NCBI GenBank assembly: GCA_947034895.1
Contig: OX344764.1
Location: 72,707,348 to 72,771,347 of the forward strand
Source: Rhytidiadelphus loreus
Lineage: Eukaryota; Streptophyta; Bryopsida; Hypnales; Hylocomiaceae
Direction of reading: 5' to 3'
DNA: 64,000 bases
A model generated the notes under the pieces. The model was given only the letters and a program-made list of their open reading frames with translations. It searched no databases and was not told the origin of the DNA. The position numbers and the translations under genes were made by a program. Of the stretch, positions 4,883 to 64,000 are shown piece by piece. Numbering within the stretch: the stretch's first letter is position 1; every line of letters begins with the position of its first letter.

Positions 4883-5616
4883 AATGGAAGAATGTTTGGT
4901 TTGATTGGATTGAATTTAATAGGAAATTGGAGAGTTTTTTTGTAAGATTTGCAAAGAGGGAGGTGATAAATACGCTTATTCTAATGAGGGGTCAATAAAC
5001 ATTAAAGTTTTAGCCTTGCAAGACTATGCAAAAACAACAAAACATAGGAAACTTTCATGGGCAAGATATGGTGGTCAAACAATTTTCCAACGGATAGTTG
5101 CAATTACAAATCACAGTTGTGATGAAGTTATCATGTCTCTTTTTAGGGTTGCCTATTTCATGGGCAAAGAATATGTGCCTTTCCATAAATTTTTAAGCTT
5201 GTGCAATCTTCTTCTACCTTATAATGCATTGATGACTTCAACATTGTATCATAATGAGGAAGTATGTACAGACGTAGTCTTAAGTATTCCTAATGTAATT
5301 CAAAGGCAATTATTGGAAAGGACGAGGGAATCCAAAAAGTTTGGACTAATGATTGATGGATCCACAAACATTTTAATTAGAAGAGATCTTGATGTCTTTG
5401 TTACATTTTTAGAGGCATGTTTGCCCATAATTGGATGTCTTGGGTTTATTGTTGATAGTGGATGAGAAGAAAAATTCAACAATCATTTTTTATTGTTGTG
5501 AAGACGTGGAAGCTAGATATGTCAAAATGTCTTGGATTTGGATCCTTGGACAAAGGATCTACAATGCTAAGAAAGCATATGGGAGTGGCTACCCAACTCA
5601 AAAAGGTAAACCTTTT

Positions 5617-37649: not shown

Positions 37650-39660
37650 TTCCTGATTAGATCAATTAATTGAAATTCATCCCTTCTTCGGTTGTGCTTT
37701 AGTGCTTTTGGCATTAAATTAGACTGTGTCAAGGTTGTGTTGGTTGTGAAGAAGTTAGGGTGCTCATTGCAGGCATTATGTTTAAGGTTTTATGGTTTCA
37801 ACTTGTCTTAGAATTGGCTTGATTAAGATTGAATTCTGCTACCATGGGAGATACTTTCGAGTTTTGAGGATAGGAGTTCTTCTTAAGAGCCCATGGTTCC
37901 TAATCAGGTTAGTTGATTGAAATTCATCCATTCTTTGGTTGTGCTTTGTACTTTTGGCATGGAGAGTCAAGTTGTATTGGGGTTGTGCCGGTTGCAAAGA
38001 AGTTAGGGTGTTCATTGCGAGCCTTATGTTTATGGTTTTATGGTTTTAGCTTGTAGGGTAGTTGCAAGAAACACCTACCAATTTTCGTTCAAAACGGCCA
38101 TTTCACTCCAGTTCGTGGATTTTGAAATAATTTAAAAAAAAATAAAATATGGATAATGTGTAAAGCATTAAAAAAATGATATGTGCAAAAATTCAGACCT
38201 AAATTTTTTTATCTCTAAGAGTTATGCACGGTCAAAGAGGGTTGAAAAATAGAAGAAAATAGACAGTTTGAAATTTAATTCTTAAAAAATAGTAAAAAAA
38301 TTCTAAAAATTCTAAAAAAAAATTAATTTTTTCTAACTTATAGATACTCCTTTTCACCAATTTTCACTATTGGAAAAATAAAATTGTGTTCTCTACACTT
38401 GCGCAAAGGTAGTGCTCTTTGAGCACATGTGGAGGGTGGACAATTTACTATTTTTAGAAATCCTTTGGTGAGATTGTGTAACTTTAGTATAAGTCCTTGT
38501 ATACCAATTTTGAAATTCAAATTCTTATTTTTGGATCAAAAATAGTACTACAAACCCCCAAAATGGCCAAGGTAGACATCCAATCGGGGGCAGTTTAAAA
38601 ATAGTAAAATAATTTTAAAAAAACCCAAAAAATTATTCAACATCTGAAACTACCACATGTACCTTCATTTCAAGTTTCATAGAAGATGGACACACGATGC
38701 AAAAGTTATGAGCAAAAAAACACCTGTCTAAGGTCAAGGGGACAAAAAATAGGACAAGTGTTTCTTGCAATCACCCTGTATCATAACTAGCTTGATTGTG
38801 GTTAGCTTCTGCTACCTTGAAAAATTAGGAGGGAATGTGAGAATTTTTGAATGGGCAACTAGAACCTTGGTTGAGCTTGGGCTTATTAGGAAAGCTAGAG
38901 TGAATTTTAGGGTGGAGATGAAAAGTGGGGGTGCTCATGGGATTGTTGAGTCAGAGTTAGAATGGGTTGTGCTTCAAAATCGATTGAAAGAAGTTGGGGT
39001 GTCGGATTCAGTCATTTTGTTTAGGGTTGTGTGGTCTTAATATGGTTTCATCTTGTATTGGAGCTAGCATGATTAGGGTTAAATTCTTCTACCTTAGGAG
39101 ATTAGGAGGAAATGTGAGAATCTTTGAAATGGCAACAAGAACCTTGGATGAGTTTGGGCTATTTAGGAAAGCTAGAGTAATTTTTAGGGTGGAGATGAAA
39201 ATTTGGGGGCTCATGGGATTGCTAAGTATTGTAAGAAGGGATTAAAGTGCGTTGTGCCTAAGGATCAATTTGAAGAAGTGAGGGTGTTGATTTTGGTTAA
39301 TTTGTTTAGGATTTTATGGTTTTGGCTTGTGTTGGGGTTGACTTGATTAGGGTTGAATTCTACTACCTTGGGAGATTAGGAAAAAATGTGAGAACTTTTG
39401 AATGGGCAACCAGAACCTTGGTTGAGGATGGGATGATTAGGAAAGCTAGAGTGAATTTTAGGGTGGAGATGAGAATTGGAGGGGGGAGGGCTCATGGGAT
39501 TACTATGTTCGGATTATAGTGCATTGTGCTTCTAGATCGATTGGAGAGGTTAGGATGTGAGTTTCGGTCATTTTGTTTATGGTTTTATGGTTTCACTTTG
39601 TATTGAGGCTAGCTTGATTAGGGTTGAACTTTGCTTCTTTGGGCACAATTGTATTGAATT
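37650..39660 (+). repeat. Reiterated ~273-bp unit, right arm
   Basis: This is the same unit as the left arm but on the plus strand, with landmarks (CTTGATTAGGGTT variants) near 38790, 39068, 39341 and 39615. The first unit is split by the 721-bp element at 38056-38776. The outer border segment (TTAATTGAAATTCATCC with GTGCTTTTGGCAT) mirrors 37020-37075 in the left arm, so both arms share the same internal start. Confidence 0.7.
38056..38776. mobile_element. 4-bp-TSD TIR element, copy 1 (721 bp)
   Basis: The ends are GGGTAGTTGCAAGAAACAC and (reverse complement) GGGTGATTGCAAGAAACAC, flanked by TGTA at 38052-38055 and 38777-38780. Removing it leaves AGCTTGTATCATAACTAGC, matching the other 273-bp units, which independently confirms the borders. 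The interior is A/T-rich and non-coding. It contains CTTGCGCAAAGG.. and GAGCACATGTGGAGG segments shared with the other copies. Confidence 0.8.
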
Positions 39661-50394: not shown

Positions 50395-51105
50395 TTTCAT
50401 AGACCTTATAGTATCCCTATACATTATATAAAATTTCCCTACTTCAAATTAAATGAACCCTATCTTTTAATTCATATAATTTTCTAAAAACTGATAGTGA
50501 TCTCCCCATAAGCTTGTGTCGGGGCTAGCTTGATTAGGAATGAATTTTGCTACCTTGGGAGATACTTTCGAGCACAAGAGTTCTTCTACTTTAGAGCCTG
50601 TGGTTCCCAATTAGGACAATTAATTGAAATTCATCCTTTCTTTGGTTGTTATATAGTGCTTTTGGCATGGGGAGTCAGGTTGTGTTGGAGTTGTATTGGT
50701 TGCAAAGAAGTAAAAGTGTCTTTTGCGGTTGTTTTGTTTATGGTATTATGGTCTTCTGGTTTCAGCTTGTGTTGGGGTTGGCTTGATTAGGGTTGAATTC
50801 TATTACCTTGGGAGATGGAGAGGGAATGTGAGAAAATTTGAATGCACACCTAGAACCTTGGTTGACTTTGGACTATTTAGAGAAACTAGAGTAAATTTTA
50901 GAGTGGAGATGAGAATTAGGAATACTCATGGGATTGTTGCGTTGGGGTTAGGGTGCTCTATGCTTCAAGATCAATTAGAAGAAGTTAGGGTGTTGGTTTC
51001 AGTTGTTTTGTTTATGGTTGAATGGTCTTATAGTTTCAGCTTGTATTGAGGCTAGCTTGATAAGGGTTCAATGTTGCTACTTTGAGAGATTATAGGATTG
51101 ACAAG
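49790..51105 (+). repeat. Segmental copy of the 34.3-39.6 kb repeat mosaic
   Basis: 49790-49990 is the reverse complement of 34250-34460. 49990-50330 matches 37290-37620 (for example TTATCATTTACATGAAATTA and the TCTTGACGG stretches). 50510-51105 carries about two plus-strand 273-bp units like 37650-39660, here without the 721-bp insertion. The frame at 50723-51049 is the open part of these units, not an independent gene. Confidence 0.7.
50358..50392. repeat. (TA)n microsatellite
   Basis: About 17 uninterrupted TA units lie inside the segmental repeat. The related copy near 37630 lacks them. Confidence 0.95.
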
Positions 51106-51832: not shown

Positions 51833-52115
51833 TCAGAGACTATATTTCAAAAACTGCTCCAAAACTACCTTTGCATTTACAAGCACCAAATTTTAGATGA
51901 AAAACATTTTTGGACATGTGTAACCATAGGATCTTGTAGTAAAATAGTTTGAAATAGTTGTGGAAATTTTTTAGAATTTTCCACCGTGTAGATTGCAAGA
52001 TATTAACGTTTGAAGTGACAAAACCCTTTTTTGGGCCCAGTGAAAATATGGGCAACTGCACTTCACAAGGTTACATTTGTATAAAAAATGTCCAAAATGG
52101 TGGTTTCCCCAAGGG
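51833..52115. mobile_element. TTAA-flanked element, copy 4 (truncated)
   Basis: It follows TTAA (51829-51832) with CCCCTAA and is collinear with 364-620 of copy 1. It lacks the insertion that copy 1 carries at 91-363, so it shows the empty site. Similarity stops near 52115, where a short GAGC-rich stretch (52120-52190) begins. Confidence 0.65.
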
Positions 52116-52379
52116 AGCTAGCATGCGAGCGCAGAGCGGGGAGTGGAGAGCGTGGAGCGGGAATTGGTGAGCAGGGAGCAGGGATTCTTTGATTTAAAAA
52201 AATAAACTAGCCAAAAAAGTATAAAATTTTAGATGACAATTTATAAAAAAGATTTGTATATCTATATATACGAGTCCTGCAACAACCTACGTAGCTATCT
52301 ATATTGATGCACTGTCATCGTTGATTTCCTGGTCATTGGTAGTTGCAGCGATACATGAGAATTCAAATAACTTAATTCA

Positions 52380-52870
52380 ATGCTCACCATGAAGTCGTAT
52401 ACGCGCGTGATTGTTTTCGTCGGTGAAATTGTTGCATTGGCTCCCACCAACAATGAAATCAAAGCCACGATACTTCTCTACAAGATTCATGAGGACATCT
52501 CTTCTGAGTTGTCTCACATCTTGATAGTCCAGGTCAAGATAGCCTTTCTAATTGGTTAAGGACCAACATGTCTACAAGCAATTGCCAGGCTCCTTCTTCG
52601 ATCTCCACGATAACCACTTGAACCTTCTGACGAGGTTCAAGAGCTCCTTCAATCATTGAAAACAACAATAGTACCTTGATTCCTTCATCTATTTGGTCTT
52701 CCAAATAGAAATGTGCTAAACCACTGTATACAGGAAAAAAGGGTTTCCAATATTTTCCAATGCTTTCTATTGTGTTGTATGGCTAAAGCAGTCCCTGAAG
52801 TGATCTCTATCCAAACCGCAACACTGCCTACATCATCCACACACAAAGTGAATGGATTGATATCCAATTT
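52380..52870 (-). pseudogene. DRM/DNMT3-type cytosine-5 methyltransferase fragment (copy B)
   Basis: On the minus strand this begins with an SIGKYW-type segment (about 52744-52767), which stands where DRM proteins have SLGNSF. It continues to GIKVLLLFSMIEGA (motif I: family pattern GIxVLSLFSGIGGA) and VQVVIVEIEE (motif II). A frameshift falls near 52555. It then runs through DYQDVRQL and GFDFIVGGSQCNN at 52429-52460 (motif IV; family pattern FDLVIGGSPCNN). The catalytic Cys is kept but the preceding Pro is Gln, and the glycines of motif I are lost. A stop follows about ten residues later. DRM enzymes carry out RNA-directed de novo DNA methylation in plants. This piece is a non-functional relic by sequence. 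Confidence 0.65.
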
Positions 52871-53239
52871 ACATACTATATTTCACGTAATCACGTCTCA
52901 CTATTATAAAAAAATCATCGAATCTGGATAAGTAAGCAGATTGAATTGGACACTACTTGATTTAGCACACGACTTGGGTTTAAGGTGGAGTCCGTTATAT
53001 TTTGATTACAACAATTTAGAAAGTAGTGGGAGCTACGATCATAATATTGATATACAACTACCATCAAGATATAAAGCAGGGTGTGATAATGATTACTTGA
53101 TTGGCAACCAAATTGTTAAGCCAAACAGTAGTCAACATGGACGTAAGCTATGGTAAGGAAAAATATGCTATGTACACCTAGGCCACTTAAATATAAGACC
53201 TTCTGATAATGAAACTGTTGAAACGAACATAGGGAGTAA

Positions 53240-53715
53240 CAAACAAGGGGACATATTACGGAAGCATTAGGGGACATATTACGCAACAGTGATAATTCAA
53301 TGTAGCCATGACAAAACCTCAGCGGAAGTAGAAGGTGCGGTACTTCTATCTCCACGCTCACCACTCCATTTAGGTTTGGTCCGCCCTGTAAAGAGGTACA
53401 CTAGCTTCTTTAAACGGGATTAAAAAAACAACAATATCTTTATGCCCATCAGACACATTGGCGTAAAAACAGAAAAGTAATAAGCCACTATGCCCGGTTT
53501 AGGGTAACTATTTCCCAGTGCTTTGTACCGTCATGTAAAGCTAAAGCAGTGCCTAGATTTTGGTTGAACCCCAGCATTGCTGACATCATCCGCACTACGT
53601 ATAGGCCAGATTCAAGTGGCAAGACCCCGCAAATCAAAATTAGACTAAGGGGACCTGAAAAGATAACCAGACACCATATTTCCATAGAAGCCTTGAATTT
53701 CAATTGCACATTCAA
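53240..53715 (-). pseudogene. DRM/DNMT3-type cytosine-5 methyltransferase fragment (copy A)
   Basis: This is a second relic, read on the minus strand. It has AMLGFNQNLG (family LGFPxNHTRG), then, after a frame change, RYKALGNSYPKPGIVAYYFSV (53460-53530; family RYKALGNSFQVDTVAYHFSV), then GIKILLFF (motif I start). GVVSVEIE (motif II) follows at about 53350-53370 after a possible splice acceptor. It covers the same part of the protein as the start of copy B, so the two are duplicate fragments, not exons of one gene. A stop directly precedes RYKALGNS. Confidence 0.65.
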
Positions 53716-53986
53716 TTGAACATTTAATTATTATCATTAATTCCTCCTTCTCCAAAATAACCATTTTCAGGGAGGCATGCATAAGCTTGTGCGCAATTGC
53801 CCTGAAATAGGTGCCCAAAACTGTTCGAGGAAGGAACTAATCCGCATACACAGTCTCCCAGAAATTTGCAATTAGGTTACAAATTATAGTCTCAGTAATA
53901 GGTCATTGGAGAGTACCAAGATAAAATAATAAGTCAAATCCACCAAAATAAGACGTCAGAAATCCAATGTAGACATTGCTCAATAG

Positions 53987-56900
53987 CTAAAGAGCTGACA
54001 TGGAACTACCCTCACTATCAGATGTTGCCACATCTGATTGTACTGCCTCTTCATCTACAAACTGCAGAATCCGGGGACTCACAAACCGGGCCCTAGAAGC
54101 TGCCCGAGGGTTTTGGTCAACATAATTTCGGGACAGAGCCTCCGCATACGGAGGTAGTTGAAACGATCTTGGAGGACTTGGGAAAAAACGTGGATTCACA
54201 AAAAATGGGACTGGCCTTGACGATGTCACTTTCTGCCCTTGCCTACATGAAAAAGTTAACCACATGTTAGAATATTGTAAATGAGCATGAATCAGTATCA
54301 CAAAATTCCAATGCTCCAAGGGTGACTTACTTACTGAATCGATTTGTTGTCTTGACCTTCTGGATGACGACTTCCTCCTCGTCCCCATCACCAAGGTCAA
54401 GCGACGAGGTGGCTGGAACCGCCTCAGGTACCACAGTTGCTCGAAGCACCGGAGCAATAAGGGCATTATAGATGTCCTTATGTTCTTCAAATGCAAGAAT
54501 ATGACGACGTGTTGCACGGCAGGCATGGATGCTAGAACCTGTGATATAACGAAGTGGACAATCGAGTTAATAATCAAAGGAAATTAATCAAATGAGCATA
54601 TTGTATTAAAGTGATAGTGAGAACCATACCTGTGGCTGCTGTGCAGTCAACAACTACGTCCCCTGGTGTAGTACATGCCTCAATGAACATCTGCATGAAC
54701 TCACAACCCTTTTCCTGAGGACCACGCCATGGCACGTCCCCATTCATTGTCACATCTTCATAGAAAACAAGGTTTCGAAGGATGTCGTCCTTCACTAGGT
54801 CTACACCGACCTTGGCTTGAGACGGGACAAGCTGGAACGGGAAGTCATGAAGTGTCTTCGGCCCACCATTTCGCACAAGTAAGGAAATGGAGAACCTTTG
54901 AGTCTGCATAACCAACAATATTAATATCGTAGACTGTATTGCAAAATTCAAACAAATGAATGCAACTAAAGTTATCGAGATGTACCGTTTTCTTTTTGTC
55001 TGCGGCTGATGTCAAATGGAGATGATTTGAGCCGAGATATGTCTCTAGAATGCGAAACTTGTAAGATTGACAGCATCCTAGAATGTGACTTCTGTGTAAA
55101 GGAGAGGACGCTGGGTAAATCAAAATGAGTGCACCACTATCTTGGAGGAATTCCTGAGCAAAGTCAAAAACAGGAAACAAGTAGTCGGTTTCGAAGTCGT
55201 TCCACTTTGGAACAGGAGCAGGTGCTGCTGAGATAGTAGGAATGTGGAGTCCTTCAGGTATATCAACAACCATGAAGTCCACACCTGGATTAGTTCCACT
55301 GACTCCGTCAATGGAGCGGGTCTTGTCACCAGAATGTTGCATGAATATGAAGACATCGTCAATACATTATTAGTTTGTAAAATTACATTGAATCTCGCAT
55401 TCGTTATAAAATAAAGGATGTAATATGTGAGATCATTATGCTATACTCAGATTCTATAACTGATTTGTGGAATGCAATAAATTGGAATAAGGAGGTGAAG
55501 AAATTACCATGGCTAAGAAGGCTTCAACGTCCTTGAAGGCCTGAGATTCCATGTCAAGATTCTTCAGGCCAACATTGAGTACGCACTCATCGATTCCCGG
55601 GGCGGGGATCACAGTCTTAGCCAAAGGGGTCTTGCCTTGCCCCAAGCGCTCCTGGGTGAGGGAGAAGCCAGACGATGAAGGATTCGCATCCGCTGCACTT
55701 GTAGCTGGTTCAAGCAAAGGGGTGTCATCCTTTGATACTCGCCGCTTCTTCTTCTCCTTCTCTTGCTCCTTCTCAAGTAGCCGCTTCTTCTTCTTCTCCT
55801 CGACCCGCTTCAGGTTTTCCTCGGTTTTCTTCTTGGCCTCCTCCAGTTTTTCCACCTTCTTCTTATCAGAAACCTCCCGCTTCTTGATGGCCTTATCCCG
55901 GGCCTCAGCATCCAGTCCCACGAACTCGTCAAACTCTACGTCAGTGACCACTGAATCCTTCAGTGTCTGAAATAGAGCCTCCTCTTCGGGTGGTGTAACT
56001 CCAAAGTTACACTCTAGATACCACGGGCAAGTCTGCAGATGTGGACTGGTCCACTTCTGCATTTGCGTCGAAGAGAACATACAGTCAGGGGATGATCGCT
56101 ATAGCCAGGTAGTCAAGAACGGGGGTAAGTCCTCCTTCTTGATGGCCTTCTTCCCGTACAACTCAAACTTAAAGTACCTGGGTACGGAAGATGAAAGGCC
56201 ATACTGCTCGTTAAAGTATATCAAATAAGTTATTATCAACTGTCAAATGGTAGTATGAAACTGATGAAAGAAAACTATCATAAAACTTGAATGACATGGC
56301 TGTCGTCGCCACCAGAGGATGATAATATGAAAATCTAATATTCAATAAGCTTGAATCCATATATAATTACTTTGTCCTACATAGAGCAAAGATGCAAAGT
56401 ATTTCAGAATGCATAACTATACCTGTAAATCAATCTCTTCACCGTGAGGTTGGTTCCCCTGTATGATGCAAAAGAGTCCGACTTCTTGAAGGCATCTGAT
56501 CCCTTGAACACTCCCGTGTAGGCTTGGTCCCAAAGTTTCATGCGCCATGTTTCAATATATTCCAAAAGTGACTGGGGCTCCTCTGGAACGTTCATGTCAA
56601 TAGGGAGGCTATCATTTTGAGTGATGTTCTCAAACATCTCCACAGCTGCCTCCTCCAGCTGCAAAATTTCAAGAATAATTAGAACTTAGAAAATATATAA
56701 GGCATCCAATCACATATTTCACACTCAAGAAAGCCCTCAAAGCGTGAATTGGTAAGAGAGACTACCCCTGCATAATAACAAGCCTTCGCCAAAAATATTG
56801 CCAACTTCTCTTCATTCACAGGGCGTGGTGGAAATCGACGAGCTTCTCTCGTGTGAGTGCTGGCGTTCATCCACTTTAGCCACTTGACCTTATGTCGAGG

Positions 56901-58967
56901 CTCTACTGCTGCAGTCGCCATAAGTTGAAGCTTTTCCAGTGTCAACTCAGGTACTGCATTATGACTCCAATGTCTCTCAATCTGCAGATGTCGAAGTATC
57001 AAAAAACAATGGAGCTTTATACATCATATAATGGATGGGAGAATAACGCAACGAAATTGTCGTACCTCCTTAAGCCAGTCCGGAGTGAGAGCGGGATTTG
57101 CTACCGCCACGATTTTCGAGAGTCTCTTGTAATGTCTATCCGTGGAGTCCTTTATAGCCGATTTCATGGTGGAAGCAACTGCCTCTCTGGCCACCTCAAT
57201 AACTGGATTCTCTTCTTTCAGTTTGCGAATTGCCGCATCAGCCGCTGCGGAAATTTCTTGCTGAATCACCACATTAGAGGTTATTTTCAAGTCATATTGA
57301 GTTGATAAAAAGGTCACAACTCAAACAATCAAATCATTGGATCAGAAGGACAGATATGATTTATGGCTTACCTTGAATATGAAACCAGTAAATATTTGAA
57401 GTGGCATAGTATACCAACTTGTCCGAGTGTACATCTTGCATGCATGCACCTCATCCTCCGTCAATAGCTCCTGGAACTTTTCAAGTTCCATAACTCCATA
57501 CTTCTGGACACGGTAAAGAGTGTGGACAAGGTTCGTTTTCACGTGGGAATTCTCGGTGTGCCTGTTGTAGGACAACCATGTTAGACTTGAATGCGAATGA
57601 CGTAAAATCAATGTATATCATCTAATATAGATAGAAGGGCTATTCAACCATGAATAGAAAATTTAAAGGGACGAATGACTTACATATTTATATCATGCAT
57701 TGCCTGCATCGCTACACCGATTCTCTGTCTGGTGTCCAAGACAATAGAATCCACACTCACATGCCAAGTGAGCTCTTGGCTGTGCAGCCTTTGGATATGA
57801 TTCATCCAAGATATTCGTCTGTGATTTCCATCGCAGACGAAAAACTTGTAATCCACAAGGTGCTTCAAGGACGGAATTGACTTCAAGTGTGCATTGAAGT
57901 TGTCATTCACGGAGTTCCAAATTGGACCCCCCACCCCATTCCTTCTTCTCTACTTCAGTGAACACCTCCGTGTTCCCCTTCTCGTCCGAAAAGGAAACGT
58001 AGAATACTCGTGCACCCTCATCATATCCTCTGGAGAACTGGTTGTCGAGCTGAGTCAAGTCGCACATCAAGGTTGGCCTCACCATTGGCATCGGCACCAA
58101 CCTGCAAAGCGGGATCTTCATGCGCGAGTGCCCGTCAGACGTCATCTTCAAGCTGTTGATGACTGTAACTGAGTCAAATGTTTGCACACGACGAATGTCC
58201 TCCTCCATGAAGCCAGGTCCCACTCCCGGGATATGATCTTGCTCAGAATCATCATCCTCCGTAGGGAACACAATGACATCGCGATCACCGCATTTGGCAG
58301 CCACGTCAGCAGATCCAATAGCACTTGGGCATTGTCCTTGATCCTACAAGTGAAGGTAAACATCAGATTCAAATGAAGATGACACCAAGACAGAGCCCAT
58401 ATTCCTCAATACGAGAATGAAAAATATCATATTAGTTTCCAACATCAGATTCATAAAACTAAAGTGGAGGTAATGTAATCAACCATTTTGGATGACAGGC
58501 TATATTGTGACCTACGAATCGGTACACGGACAAGCCTCTAATAGAAGCCTGAACATCCCGCAACACAATATTAGAATGTCGTTGTCTGACATCTGTCCAG
58601 AGTCAACATCATCGAGGTCTCTCGTGCAATAGTCATCCCTATTCTCAGACACTGTAATTTCCAGATCCCATGATCCTAATGACGTGCAGCAAGATGATTG
58701 CGGTGATAACGGTCTCTCCAAATTTCTGATTTCCACTAGTTCATCAAGCTCACGAATGAGGTCATCAAGGTCGCCTACCATCTGCGCTTGATCGTCATGT
58801 GGAGCATCAATAGCACCCTTGCCAGCGACCGGGAATGGTGCTGGGGCAACATCCGTCATAGGTACATCCATCCCTGTTTGTAGTAAATGGTCCTCTTGCG
58901 GAGGGTCGATGCGCTCAACTTCAGCCGATTCGGATTCAATTATCTGCACCGGAATTATTACAATCAT
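53987..58967 (-). pseudogene. ParB-like + beta-class N4/N6 amino-methyltransferase fusion gene, intron-rich, probably decayed
   Basis: Hand-spliced exons: 58512-58967 (acidic, disordered), 57684-58343, 57372-57561, 57066-57260, 56724-56981, 56423-56658, 55508-56177, 54986-55321, 54630-54903, 54331-54538 and 53987-54242. Introns are GT-AG, except the donor after 56724, which is not canonical. The C-terminal part is a beta-class methyltransferase: GVDFMVVDIPEG at the motif IV position (DIPE for DPPY, 55253-55264), then EFLQDSGALILIY, then KGCEFMQMFIEACTTPGD and VVVDCTAATGSSIHACRATR (motifs X and I), closing with FEEHKDIYNAL. The N-terminal part has FVCDGNHRRISW, then a block with HTENSHVKTNLV, resembling ParB. 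A Lys/Glu coiled-coil stretch (55700-55900) links them. Lesions: one extra G in 57927-57932, TAG at 56099-56101, and an unclear end of exon 1. The methyltransferase exons themselves are open. Function is unknown; it may modify or only bind DNA. Confidence 0.7.
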
Positions 58968-59099
58968 TAGTTATAGGAAGACCCGACTTCTATTTCGCCA
59001 TGACTCATTGAAGTTCACAAGTAAAGTGCATGACCTACAATAATCCAGCGCTATGAGAAAGTCCCAATACTTAAGAATAAATTTGATATTCACTAATTT

Positions 59100-61082
59100 C
59101 CGCGCTCAGACTGCCACCCCTGGGACCCCCTCTCGGTACCAAGAGGGCCCACTCGGGACTACATGCTATGCACAGAAACGGAACAGGCTACGGCGCTGGC
59201 CATCCTCAGGCAGATGCGAGCATGGCTCTCTCACGAAGGCCACGATGACGGAGACTGTATCGGTAAAAAAATACAATGGATTCCCTGCCTTCCGAGCTCA
59301 GCCAGCAGTGAAGCGGACACCCTCTCGGTACCGAGAGGGCCCCAAGACGAGACGAAGCTTTGCTCAGCAAAAAAAAACCTCGGTGATCACGCGAGCCATA
59401 TGCGGGTCGAAACTCATTCTCTTTCACAGCTCCAAAAAAGGTGGTGACCTAATTGAAAAATAAAACATTGGTGAACCAGAATCCCGAGCTCAGCCAACAG
59501 GGGTTCGGACCCCCTCTCGGAACCGAGAGGGCCCTGAGACGATACGAAGCTGTGTACAGAGAAGGGACACCTCGATGAGCACGCGACCCGCAGGCAGAGG
59601 GAGGCTCGCTGCACTCACCCGTGAGAACAAGGTGGCGACAGCAAAGGAAAAAAATGCAATGGTGAACCTCCCTTAGCGAGCTCAACCAGTTGGGTCAAGG
59701 ACCCTCCCTCGGTACCGAGAGGGCCCACGGGAAACGCCGAGCTATGCACACAGAAGGGTCAGCCCACGAAGCACGTGACCCGCAACTCACCCGAGAAAAT
59801 AAGGTGGCGACAGCAAAGGAAAAAAATGCAACGGTGAACCTGCCTTAGCGAGCTCAACCAGTTGGGTCAAGGACCCCCCCTCGGTACCGAGAGGGCCCAC
59901 GGGAAACGCCGAGCTATGCACACAGAAGGGTCAGCCCACAAAGCACGCGACCCGCAACTCACCCGAGAAAATAAGGTGGCGGCAGTGAAGGAAAAAAATG
60001 CAACGGTGAACCTGCCTTAGCGAGCTCAACCAGTTGGGTCAAGGACCCTCCCTCGGTACCGAGAGGGCCCACGGGAAACGCCGAGCTATGCACACAGAAG
60101 GGTCAGCCCACAAAGCACGCGACCCGCAACTCACCCGAGAAAATAAGGTGGCGGCAGTGAAGGAAAAAAATGCAACGGTGAACCTGCCTTAGCGAGCTCA
60201 ACCAGTTGGGTCAAGGACCCTCCCTCGGTACCGAGAGGGCCCACGGGAAACGCCGAGCTATGCACACAGAAGGGTCAGCCCACGAAGCACGTGACCCGCA
60301 ACTCACCCGAGAAAATAAGGTGGCGACAGCAAAGGAAAAAAATGCAACGGTGAACCTGCCTTAGCGAGCTCAACCAATTGGGTCAAGGACCCCCCCTCGG
60401 TACCGAGAGGGCCCACGGGCAATGCCGAGCTATGCACACAAAAGGGTCAGCCCACAAAGCACGTGACCCGCAACTCACCCGAGAAAATAAGGTGGCGACA
60501 GCAAAGGAAAAAAATGCAACGGTGAACCTGCCTTAGCGAGCTCAACCAGTTGGGTCAAGGACCCCCCCTCGGTACCGAGAGGGCCCACGGGAAACGCCGA
60601 GCTATGCACACAGAAGGGTCAGCCCACGAAGCACGTGACCCGCAACTCACCCGAGAAAATAAGGTGGCGACAGCAAAGGAAAAAAATGCAACGGTGAACC
60701 TGCCTTAGCGAGCTCAACCAGTTGGGTCAAGGACCCCCCCTCGGTACCGAGAGGGCCCACGGGCAACGCCGAGCTATGCACACAGAAGGGTCAGCCCACA
60801 AAGCACGCGACCCGCAACTCACCCGAGAAAATAAGGTGGCGGCAGTGAAGGAAAAAAATGCAACGGTGAACCTGCCTTAGCGAGCTCAACCAGTTGGGTC
60901 AAGGACCCCCCCTCGGTACCGAGAGGGCCCACGGGCAACGCCGAGCTATGCACACAGAAGGGTCAGCCCACGAAACACGCGACCCGCCACTCACCCGTGA
61001 GAACAAGATGGCGACAGCAGAGGAAAAAAATGCAACGGTGAACCTACCTTAGCGAGCTCAACCAGTTGGGTCAAGGACCCCC
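59100..61082. repeat. Tandem array of 12 copies, period 192 bp then 172 bp
   Basis: Using the TCGGTACC landmark, copies sit at 59133, 59325, 59517, 59709, 59881, 60053, 60225, 60397, 60569, 60741 and 60913, so three steps are 192 bp and then all are 172 bp. A twelfth copy is cut just before its landmark. The 172-bp form lacks 20 bp (GGCAGAGGGAGGCTCGCTGC, present at about 59591-59610) between short GCA repeats. Each unit has a palindrome, perfect over 20 bp (CCCTCTCGGTACCGAGAGGG) in the copy at about 59320. Inner copies are nearly identical and outer ones diverged. Open frames across it are not genes. Confidence 0.95.
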
Positions 61083-64000
61083 TGTGAGCCCTCAAGTTGG
61101 CACTTGGAACTCTGAACTTATTTTTCGCGATTTTTAGTTAATTTTTAAGTGGAAAATAGGAAAAAACATATAAAAATACAATTATTGTGGGTTTTGGTAG
61201 AAGTCCCTACCAAAGAGGTGTGTCATGGCCTTAAATGCGGGAAATACGTAAGACGTTACATTTTCACTAATTTTAGGTCTTATTAGTATAAATAAGTAGT
61301 TATGTTAGTAATTCCGAGCGATGTGAGAATTTGAGAGTTAACCAGTCCTAGTGTCTTGTTCATGTAATACAACAGCTATAAGTATACATGTAACAAACTG
61401 GTTAAAAGTTAGAGTCTAGTCAGAGTCAGTCCAAATCCAACTCGAAAGAGTTAGATTTATTGTTTGCAGGTAATTTTGAGAAATACATTCATTCGCAGAC
61501 CAAGATGGAGGAAATGATGATTGGAACATACAGAGAGGTGCTTTTCTAGGTCAAAGCATGCCAGGAGGTCAAATAGAAGCCCAATCATCCAAGATTCCCC
61601 CGGTATCAAGAATAATTTTCCCCCTGGGTGGAAATTATTAAAGAATTGCTAAAAATAGCATTCTTATTGGAGATTTGGTTTTGCCCTTAGTTGATGGACA
61701 TCTTGTAGAAGATTGCCCAAAAGTTTCGGGATTTTACAAAACTCCACGATGACTCCATGGGAAGTCAACCGCTTAAAACTGCATTCGTAAATTTCTAGAA
61801 ATTACCAATGTTGCGGTAAAATCGCACTAAAAATTAGGATAGTGTTTTGTGTGCCAATAAAGAGCCCTGTCAAGTTTGAAGACATTCCGACATTCCCAAG
61901 TACCAGAATTAGAACCGACAGCGAATTTTACAAGAATTTACAACTTGGCGGCGGGTTGACCGGCGAACCAAGAGCTAGCGGTGTCCGAACGGAGCGTTTC
62001 AAGGGTCAATTCTTACTCCCACGAATATTCTAAACCACCCAGGACCAACAGTTTCATCAAAAGACGCAAACTCCAAAAGTTAGCTTTTTAACTTTTGTTC
62101 TGAGTTACCGTGACTCAAATTTGCGCTTTAAAACGGCTGGAGAGGTAGGGGTAAGGGGTCCCTTAGGCTAATTGGGGTCTTCTGAACACGATGGCGCAGT
62201 TTGTTTTCAGTTTCGAGTTGTCCCTCAAAAGATAGAGAGGGTCAGCCCTTAGTTTGACTTTTAAAAGGTAATTTTTGATTAATCTGGGTTGATTTTGCAA
62301 ATATCTCTTGTAAAATCGAAGATTGGATTTGCCCAAGATACTTGTCTTGCGTAAGAAGCCATCTTTTGGACTAAAGAAAGCCAATTTAGAACTAACCCTA
62401 GATTAAAACACAAAATATCTTGGTTAATTAGGTAGGTTTTCAAAATATCTTTGGGAAAATCAAATATTTGATTTGGGAAAAGATTCTAAGGCCATTTAGG
62501 GCCTAGAAGGAACTCGCTTGAGAACCTTCCTTTCCATTAAACAAAGATTATTTTGAAAATACGTTTAGGTAGTTTAGCAAAATATCTAGATTGAAAGTAA
62601 AAGATAATTTACGAACAACTTACCGGGGAGGGGCCGGGAGCGAGTATATAAGGCCCTTCCTCGAGGTTGTTCGTGGCCCTCATTCTTTGTTTCATTCTTG
62701 TTGTTGCTCTTGTCGTGCTACCGACACTTGTCGGAGCACTTTTTAAAGCCAAATTTTGGCTATTTTCTTCTATTTTCTTCTATTTTCTTGTACTTTGAAG
62801 GTCCGGAGGGCCCCTTCAAAGCTTTGTTTCTTTTCTTGTTTGAATTTGGAGGCTTCAAGCCCCAAAACTTTGTTTTCCAAGAGTTTAGGTGGAGGAAATC
62901 CCCTAACTCTAGTGTTGTTTGTGTTAACTAACTTATTTCTTGAATTTGGAGGCTTCAAGCCCCAAAACTTTGACATTTTGGGAGTTGTGGGATTAGTTCC
63001 CAAACTCTACTTTGATTTTGTTGTTCTTTTGAATACTAACCAACCATTTGTGTGAATTGAGAATAGTCTGTGAACTTAAAACTTTAAAGCGGCGAAGCTA
63101 GACTTTGCCAAAAGGTTTTGAGCATCACCACGTGCCAAAACTCGTTGTATAACGGGTGTTTGGTTTGAATAGTTACTAATGTTCGGTTAAACACTGTCAT
63201 GTGTACCTCCTTTAGTGATTAAACTTAAAACTTTGCTTTGAATTTTGGAGATTAGTTTTTAATGTTCGGTTAAACACTGTCATGTGTACCTCCTTTAAGA
63301 ACTAAGTTTTCAAAATACTAGTTTGGGTCCTTGGATACTGGTTATTCCTGGGGTTGCTCCCGCACGGCGGAGCTTTGACTTTGAAACCTGGAAACGGGTA
63401 CTTGAAATTTTAAATTGTTCGGTTATACCTGGGGTTGCCCCCGCACGGCGAAGCTTTGACTTTTAAAAGTTAAAATTCACCATTGTGGGAAAAACTAATT
63501 TGTGGTTTGCACGGCGGAGCTTTGAACTTTTAAATTCGCATTTGTGAAAAATACTAATACCAGGGATTGTCCCTCAAGGCGAAGCTTTAACCTTAATAAT
63601 AAGAATCAGGGAAGTAAGATCCTTTGAAACTTATTTAAAGACTAAGAGCCTTGAATTGTTTCTCTTCCGATTGTGCAAGTTGTGGAGGTATTTGGCCTCC
63701 CAAGCTTGTTATTGTTTCTTTATTAGATTGCTAGTTTTATTTTCAATTTTCAATTTTACAATCAATTGAGTCAATATAGTTGTTGGTTGTGTCTTTTATT
63801 TCCATAGAAACTTATTCCCCCTGCTGTGGTTTTCTTTCTTTGCTAGTTATTAATTTTGAATTATGTGGGACTTTTAGAATGATTAAAATTAGCTCGTAAG
63901 TAGGATTCAGATTTTCTGAAGAGGACCGATCCAGCCCCAAAGAAATCAGTTCGAGAGGACCAGTACGGGGTCGGATTCAAGACTGACGGGGTCGGGCCAA
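61083..64000 (+). mobile_element. LTR-like sequence interrupting the array (runs off the window)
   Basis: It begins TGTGAGCC exactly where the twelfth array copy is broken, has no coding frame of note, and carries a TATATAAG box at 62645 followed by a T/C-rich leader. These are features of a long retrotransposon LTR and untranslated region. The second end, primer-binding site and target duplication are outside the window, so the class is not proven. Short internal repeats: GGCTTCAAGCCCCAAAACTT at about 62852 and 62951; TGTTCGGTTAAACACTGTCA at about 63180 and 63261; and CCCGCACGGCGGAGCTTTGA with variants at about 63359, 63440, 63507 and 63570. Confidence 0.5.
62645..62652 (+). promoter_or_regulatory. 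TATA box of the LTR-like sequence
   Basis: TATATAAG lies in a locally GC-rich stretch (GGGGCCGGGAGCGAG before, GGCCCTTCC after), about 30 bp ahead of a pyrimidine-rich candidate start region. This is a typical plant RNA polymerase II core promoter layout. Confidence 0.5.

What the first reader, a model, noticed from the sequence alone, without database searches (positions are those of the whole stretch)
53987..58967. A plant, intron-rich ParB-like/amino-methyltransferase fusion
Seen: eleven spliceable blocks give one protein with a DGNHRR-containing segment followed by a beta-class methyltransferase in the IV-then-X-I order. Known: ParB-N (PF02195) fused to N6_N4_Mtase (PF01555) is common in bacteria, phages and mobile elements. 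Inference: a captured prokaryote/phage-type DNA modification gene that has lived in a plant nucleus long enough to gain ten introns, or a domesticated transposon gene. I know of no described plant family with this layout.
Basis: partly seen in the sequence, partly recalled or inferred. Interest (0 to 1): 0.92.

Follow-up and report, generated by a model that had tools for sequence, protein, structure and literature searches.

The report
Plant transposon gene with methyltransferase fold
The gene is one decayed copy of an accessory gene carried by a large, high-copy DNA transposon of a plant that is probably a moss; it resembles a bacterial DNA methyltransferase with an altered active site and sits beside an array of conserved palindromes that a protein of the transposon probably recognises.

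Summary
It is not a lone captured or domesticated gene but belongs to a high-copy transposon: 150 of 150 scored places in this 407-Mb genome (window copy included; 1054 candidates) match its ParB-like exon at E <= 1.3e-38. The one copy with both ends fetched is 18,284 bp, with inverted ends and a 10-bp target duplication, and carries a divergent transposase-like gene. I take it for a Mutator-like element; Pfam does not confirm the transposase. The window copy is truncated and broken by a 7-bp insertion and a stop; 2 of 7 spliced copies are open over exons 2-11. The methyltransferase half is supported (PF01555; profile comparison E 1e-7), but motif IV reads D[I/M/V]PEG. The ParB half is motif-level only; every profile search failed. 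Between subfamilies dN/dS is 0.11. Upstream arrays keep the dyad CTCGGnnCCGAG in 4 of 5 copy groups while flanks do not align. Best reading: an accessory protein acting on its own element's dyads, by analogy with VANC anti-silencing proteins. Binding and function are inferred.

The parts
52110..61082 (.). Remnant of the transposon (right part, with the accessory gene and the dyad array); the transposase half is missing
   Evidence: Right end coincides with the right end of other copies; homology to copy k1 is 98.3% over 7354 bp
52110..52251 (.). Outer piece of the right inverted end
   Evidence: 90% identical to the right end of copies k1 and k3; ends with the same terminal bases
53987..54242 (-). 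Exon 11, with the stop codon
54331..54538 (-). Exon 10: end of motif I and following helix of the methyltransferase part
54630..54903 (-). Exon 9: motif X and start of motif I
54986..55321 (-). Exon 8: motif IV region, here VVDIPEG
55508..56177 (-). Exon 7: conserved stretch and charged coiled linker; contains an in-frame stop in this copy
56423..56658 (-). Exon 6, predicted helical
56766..56981 (-). Exon 5, predicted helical
57066..57260 (-). Exon 4, predicted helical
57372..57561 (-). Exon 3, end of the ParB-like region
57684..58343 (-). Exon 2, ParB-like region with IPLCRLVP and DGNHR; contains a 7-bp insertion in this copy
58516..58943 (-). Exon 1 (acidic; join to exon 2 unresolved; could be a separate small frame)
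59123..61082 (.). Upstream array, 11 near-perfect copies of CCCTCTCGGTACCGAGAGGG spaced 192 then 172 bp

Best explanation
The gene is the accessory gene of a high-copy, probably Mutator-like DNA transposon of a plant that is probably a moss. A complete element holds two divergent genes, a transposase-like gene and the methyltransferase-like gene, with an array of palindromic dyads (core CTCGGnnCCGAG) between them, inside long inverted ends. I propose that the accessory protein acts, probably as a dimer, on the dyads of its own element and keeps the shared promoter region active or unsilenced, as VANC proteins do for Arabidopsis VANDAL elements. The methyltransferase fold may serve mainly to read DNA, because its motif IV is changed. 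Shown: the element, its copy number, open copies, selection on the protein, conservation and place of the dyads. Inferred: Mutator-like class, which element protein binds the dyads, dimeric binding, anti-silencing, loss of catalysis.
For: High copy number: 150 of 150 scored places match, on C1 to C5. Complete copy with inverted ends and a 10-bp target duplication. Divergent ORF of 697 aa, open in k3, k9 and k10, with a weak SWIM match nearby. dN/dS 0.109, 0.107, 0.107 in three comparisons with k10, against 0.55 and 0.52 within one subfamily. Motif IV D[I/M/V]PEG in 8 of 8 copies read. 159 exact palindromes in the genome and none of the reversed control; of the 50 sites listed, 45 (in 14 places) lie within 10 kb of and upstream of a listed ParB-like exon, random placement 0.4 on average and 3 at most. 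Dyad core kept while flanks are near random. VANC proteins bind tandemly repeated short motifs in non-coding parts of their elements (PMC5735166, passages).
Against: No binding, expression or methylation data. One of five copy groups (L054) has a 12-copy array but no CTCGGnnCCGAG dyad even with one mismatch. Pfam finds no transposase domain in the divergent gene and SWIM is below its cut-off. The transposase could be the dyad binder; a lone dyad also lies in the transposase half of some copies. A genome search with PF01555 found 8 matches, all on small contigs and none in this family. ParB is unsupported by any profile search, so a ParB-like way of binding palindromes is not founded. The random control treats clustered sites as independent.
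Confidence: 0.42

Rival explanations
1. The transposase, not the accessory protein, binds the dyad array; the accessory protein has another task, for example in protecting or processing element DNA during transposition.
For: Transposases often bind repeated sites of their elements (recalled). The array lies between both genes and a lone dyad lies in the transposase half of k2, k3, k6, k7 and k9.
Against: The arrays are central and upstream of the accessory gene, and the scan of the copies listed no such sites in the inverted ends.
Confidence: 0.25
2. The methyltransferase is active and writes 4mC or 6mA on element DNA, either to counter or to mark it.
For: PF01555 match above cut-off in two members, motifs X-I-II recognisable, dN/dS 0.18-0.21 in this part. 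Bdelloid rotifers use a captured enzyme of this class on transposons (PMC8885841, passages).
Against: Motif IV is D[I/M/V]PEG in 8 of 8 copies read, without the aromatic residue of DPPY or SPPY; the first glycine of motif I is replaced in the window copy and in Ceratodon. Ceratodon keeps DTPF, so activity is more likely there.
Confidence: 0.15
3. The array is a neutral satellite or a plain host promoter array and the protein does not recognise it.
For: Tandem arrays expand by chance; GTGGGCCC next to many palindromes resembles host TCP-factor sites (sequence; TCP recalled). L054 has an array without the dyad.
Against: The dyad core persists between repeat units of 172/192, 160 and 118 bp that do not otherwise align; six control dyads of the same composition occur once in 72 counts.
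Confidence: 0.13
4. A lone captured or domesticated host gene with a conserved function.
For: Ceratodon showed a single annotated protein in the search.
Against: High-copy family with shared ends and a target duplication in this genome; copies decay within a subfamily.
Confidence: 0.03

Closest known systems
VANDAL elements and their VANC proteins (Arabidopsis, Mutator-like)
   Same: DNA transposon with an accessory gene and a short motif repeated in tandem in its non-coding DNA (PMC5735166, passages)
   Different: Accessory protein here has a methyltransferase fold; Pfam scans of its parts listed no VANC-type domain; the motif is a 12-bp dyad; binding and demethylation untested
ParB-N6_N4 methyltransferase fusions of phages
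   Same: Methyltransferase of the same Pfam class; possibly the same domain order (PMC12704722, passages)
   Different: ParB part not confirmed; a long helical and coiled part lies between; introns; motif IV changed; nuclear transposon
N4CMT of bdelloid rotifers
   Same: Prokaryote-type N6_N4 methyltransferase domain in a eukaryote, with introns, linked to transposons (PMC8885841, passages)
   Different: N4CMT is a host gene with a chromodomain and shown activity; here it is a gene of the transposon with an altered motif IV
Hypothetical proteins M758_1G295400 (Ceratodon) and R1sor_003727, R1sor_017749 (Riccia)
   Same: Same protein family: E 1.9e-115, 3.0e-13, 3.3e-10
   Different: Motif IV DTPF in Ceratodon and DMPT in R1sor_003727; whether they lie in transposons could not be tested

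Membership tests
Mutator-like DNA transposon | Target duplication of about 8-11 bp | tested here: met
   10 bp in copy k3, the one copy with both ends fetched; range from the table in PMC6446971
Mutator-like DNA transposon | Inverted ends | tested here: met
   k3: 246 of 344 aligned columns identical over 320 bp from each end
Mutator-like DNA transposon | MULE-type transposase domain | tested here: inconclusive
   Pfam: 0 families for the 697-aa ORF; SWIM E 0.06 at 13.4 bits, cut-off 19.6; DDE-like and HNHP motifs are my reading from recall
N6_N4_Mtase (PF01555) | Match over the curated cut-off of 26.7 bits | tested here: met
   Ceratodon 30.4, k10 30.0 met; window 26.6 and y2 26.3 just below
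N6_N4_Mtase (PF01555) | Catalytic motif IV (D/S/N)PP(Y/F/W) | tested here: not met
   D[I/M/V]PEG in 8 of 8 copies read; DTPF in Ceratodon, DMPT in R1sor_003727
ParB-N (PF02195) | Profile match | tested here: not met
   No ParB family listed by hmmscan at E up to 10; hhalign 0.2% with reversed controls alike; a genome search with PF02195 did not complete
ParB-N (PF02195) | ParB/Srx fold | tested here: inconclusive
   AlphaFold model mean pLDDT 36
VANC-like anti-silencing system | Motif repeated in tandem in non-coding DNA of the element | tested here: met
   but L054 lacks the dyad
VANC-like anti-silencing system | Protein binds the motif and lowers DNA methylation | not testable with these tools
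   needs binding and methylation data

The most novel reading that the evidence does not exclude
Plant transposons have recruited a protein with a ParB-like region and a methyltransferase fold that loads, like ParB at parS, on arrays of palindromes in its own element and acts from there to keep the element unsilenced: a self-recognising, centromere-like anti-silencing system, possibly older than the split of mosses and liverworts.
Probability: 0.15. Interest if true: 0.93.

Novelty: new variant of a known kind. Interest (0 to 1): 0.78.

Why it matters
How transposons escape host silencing is a central question, and few element-encoded escape proteins are known. An unrelated kind of accessory protein with its own conserved dyads would suggest that plant transposons solved this more than once. 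It also places a bacterial-type methyltransferase fold in plant transposons, where long-read methylation data could test it. For annotators it warns that 'hypothetical protein' genes such as the Ceratodon one may be transposon genes.

Tried and rejected
Rejected: lone captured or domesticated gene. Rejected: one intact protein in this copy. Not supported: ParB fold, after hmmscan, PHROGs and NCBIfam, a PDB sequence profile, hhalign against 8 ParB-methyltransferases, 7 of phages and 1 from a small contig of this assembly, tblastn in phages and plasmids, scans of viral and prokaryote contigs, and an AlphaFold model of mean pLDDT 36. Further protein searches with an alignment and with a region listed only the Ceratodon protein itself; the alignment search scored only the candidates sharing most words. 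A scan of viral contigs with a ParB-methyltransferase of this assembly found nothing. An alignment of short exon pieces was misaligned and dropped. Never answered: genome searches with the Ceratodon methyltransferase part, with PF02195 and with CTCGGNNCCGAG. A genome search with PF01555 gave 8 matches, all outside this family.
Full report
What was checked. A conceptual product, read through one frame shift and one stop, matches a hypothetical protein of Ceratodon purpureus over 85% of its length at 31% identity (E 1.9e-115) and two Riccia sorocarpa proteins more weakly, E 3.0e-13 and 3.3e-10. Ceratodon is a moss and Riccia a liverwort (recalled), so the family is old in plants or moves between them.

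This copy is broken. Exon 2 is 660 nt here and 653 nt in 6 of 6 aligned copies, a 7-bp insertion that shifts the frame. Exon 7 has a stop in a stretch that aligns with Ceratodon on both sides. Of 7 spliced copies (window included), 2 are open over exons 2-11, k3 and k10; k1 and k4 have one stop each, k7 and k8 have shifted frames. In exon 1, k1 and k3 share a stop, so only k10 of the seven is open throughout. Projected on 7 copies, GT stands at 68 of 70 donors and AG at 75 of 77 acceptors. The obvious exon 1/2 join is out of phase; an acceptor 20 bases into the block would restore it and fits k10, which lacks the outer AG (inference).

It is a transposon gene. The ParB-like exon gave 1054 candidate places in the genome; 150 were scored, and 150 of 150 match at E <= 1.3e-38 with 53-100% identity, the window copy being the one at 100%; all lie on C1 to C5. 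By my hand count about 110 of the 150 rows list no stop in that stretch. Ten copies with 10 kb on either side show that homology to the window ends at one right end and, in several, runs far upstream. Copy k3 (C2:78004569-78022852) is complete: 18,284 bp, inverted ends (246 of 344 aligned columns identical) and a 10-bp target duplication. It is the only copy of which both ends were fetched. Its left half holds, on the opposite strand, a 697-aa ORF, which is also open in k9 and k10, has one stop in k6 and three in k7, and is split by a frame shift in k2. Pfam lists no family for that ORF; a nearby ORF has a SWIM match of E 0.06, below the cut-off. From the ends, the duplication and motifs that I recall I take it for a Mutator-like element. 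The window copy runs from 52110 to 61082, then gives way to another repeat that also occurs in k9.

Selection. dN/dS between subfamilies is 0.109 (k3-k10), 0.107 (k4-k10) and 0.107 (k1-k10). For k3-k10 it is 0.05 in the ParB-like region, 0.08 in the helical part, 0.10 in the linker, 0.18 in the methyltransferase part, 0.17 in the tail and 0.22 in the first 52 residues. Within a subfamily it is 0.55 (k1-k3) and 0.52 (k3-k4). This is the usual pattern of a transposon gene that is kept by selection while it moves and decays after insertion. Synonymous divergence is lower in the methyltransferase part (0.32 against 0.86 in the ParB-like part), which I cannot explain; exchange between copies is possible.

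Methyltransferase half. PF01555 matches Ceratodon (30.4 bits) and k10 (30.0) over the cut-off of 26.7; the window copy (26.6) and y2 (26.3) fall just below. A comparison of profiles with eight ParB-methyltransferases gives 94% and E 1e-7 over 58 columns around motifs X-I-II; the reversed control gives nothing. A six-frame search of this genome with PF01555 found 8 matches, all on small contigs, none in this family. Motif IV reads D[I/M/V]PEG in 8 of 8 copies read (window, k1, k3, k4, k7, k8, k10, y2), DTPF in Ceratodon and DMPT in one Riccia protein; the other Riccia protein ends before it. Catalysis is therefore doubtful here and may persist in Ceratodon.

ParB half. DGNHR and neighbouring residues are the same in all four aligned proteins, and the order of motifs resembles ParB-N to my eye (recalled). 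Every search failed to support it: Pfam, PHROGs, NCBIfam, PDB profile, hhalign, phages, plasmids, viral and prokaryote contigs, and the structure model is unusable. A survey of the ParB-CTPase fold reports fusions to N6_N4 methyltransferase mainly in phages and names sulfiredoxin as the most common eukaryotic form (PMC12704722, passages).

Palindromes. Upstream of the gene lie 11 near-perfect copies of CCCTCTCGGTACCGAGAGGG, spaced 192 then 172 bp, the only places in the window within 5 mismatches. In 11 of 11 copies (window included) such sites occur at 4 mismatches or fewer, 2 to 35 in each 20- or 28-kb stretch. The genome has 159 exact sites and none of the reversed control. The tool listed 50 of them, on C1 and part of C2; 45, in 14 places, lie within 10 kb of and upstream of one of the 71 listed ParB-like exons of C1 and C2, while random placement gives 0.4 on average and at most 3, treating sites as independent. 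The other 5 are 15 to 64 kb from the nearest listed exon. In five comparisons between copies the palindrome is 93-96% identical on average and 60-bp flanks 49-55%, against 46% for random sequence. In k10 seven sites read CTCGGGGCCGAG at 160-bp spacing and two CTCGGTACCGAG. In y2 the unit is 118 bp, and of 18 dyads 15 read CTCGGCCCCGAG. L053 has three CTCGGGCCCGAG and two with one mismatch but no array that the repeat finder reports. The common core is CTCGGnnCCGAG. L054, the most distant copy fetched, has a 12-copy 150-bp array without this dyad, even at one mismatch; its units hold separate half-sites. So the dyad is found in 4 of 5 groups (k1-k9 with the window, k10, y2, L053; not L054), the last four groups being one copy each. 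Six control dyads of the same composition occur once in 72 counts.

Interpretation. The layout is a plant transposon with an accessory gene and a motif repeated in tandem in non-coding DNA, which is how VANC proteins and their targets are arranged in Arabidopsis VANDALs (PMC5735166, passages). I think it most likely that the accessory protein acts on the dyads of its own element to counter silencing or drive the shared promoter. Which protein binds the dyads is not shown. Rivals are that the transposase binds them, that the methyltransferase is active, and that the array is neutral.

Novelty. In a review of Mutator elements the words methyltransferase, methylase and moss do not occur in the main text (PMC6446971, passages and counts). 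No paper of the held open-licence library has ParB, bryophyte and transposable element together, or N6_N4_Mtase and bryophyte. I call it a new variant of a known kind: a transposon with an accessory gene of a type that I found described nowhere in these searches. The source plant is not named; its relatives and five large sequences of 51-94 Mb suggest a moss (inference).

Noticed in passing
L001-L008 (contigs C62, C174, C245, C295, C309, C318, C426): Small contigs of the assembly carry intact prokaryote-type methyltransferase genes, one of them (L006) a ParB-methyltransferase fusion; they look like bacterial contamination (inference).
   Followed up: partly
L024-L029 and L044: exon 1 of copies k1 and k3: Both share an in-frame stop in exon 1. 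In 7 of 7 copies the exon 1 block is followed by TAG at the same place, so it could be a separate small reading frame.
   Followed up: partly
window 4923-5465: A 180-aa open frame that looks like part of a hAT-type transposase (recalled; not searched).
   Followed up: no
window 61081-63480: Another repeat abuts the array; 93% identical to a stretch downstream in copy k9.
   Followed up: no
window 38793-39479 and 50511-51090: Tandem units of about 274 bp that look alike at the two places.
   Followed up: no
k3, inverted ends (C2:78004569-78022852): The inverted ends consist largely of a minisatellite of GGATGAAAAAAGT-like units.
   Followed up: no
copies k3 and k10, methyltransferase part: Synonymous divergence is much lower in this part than in the ParB-like part (0.32 against 0.86), as if exchanged between copies.
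   Followed up: no
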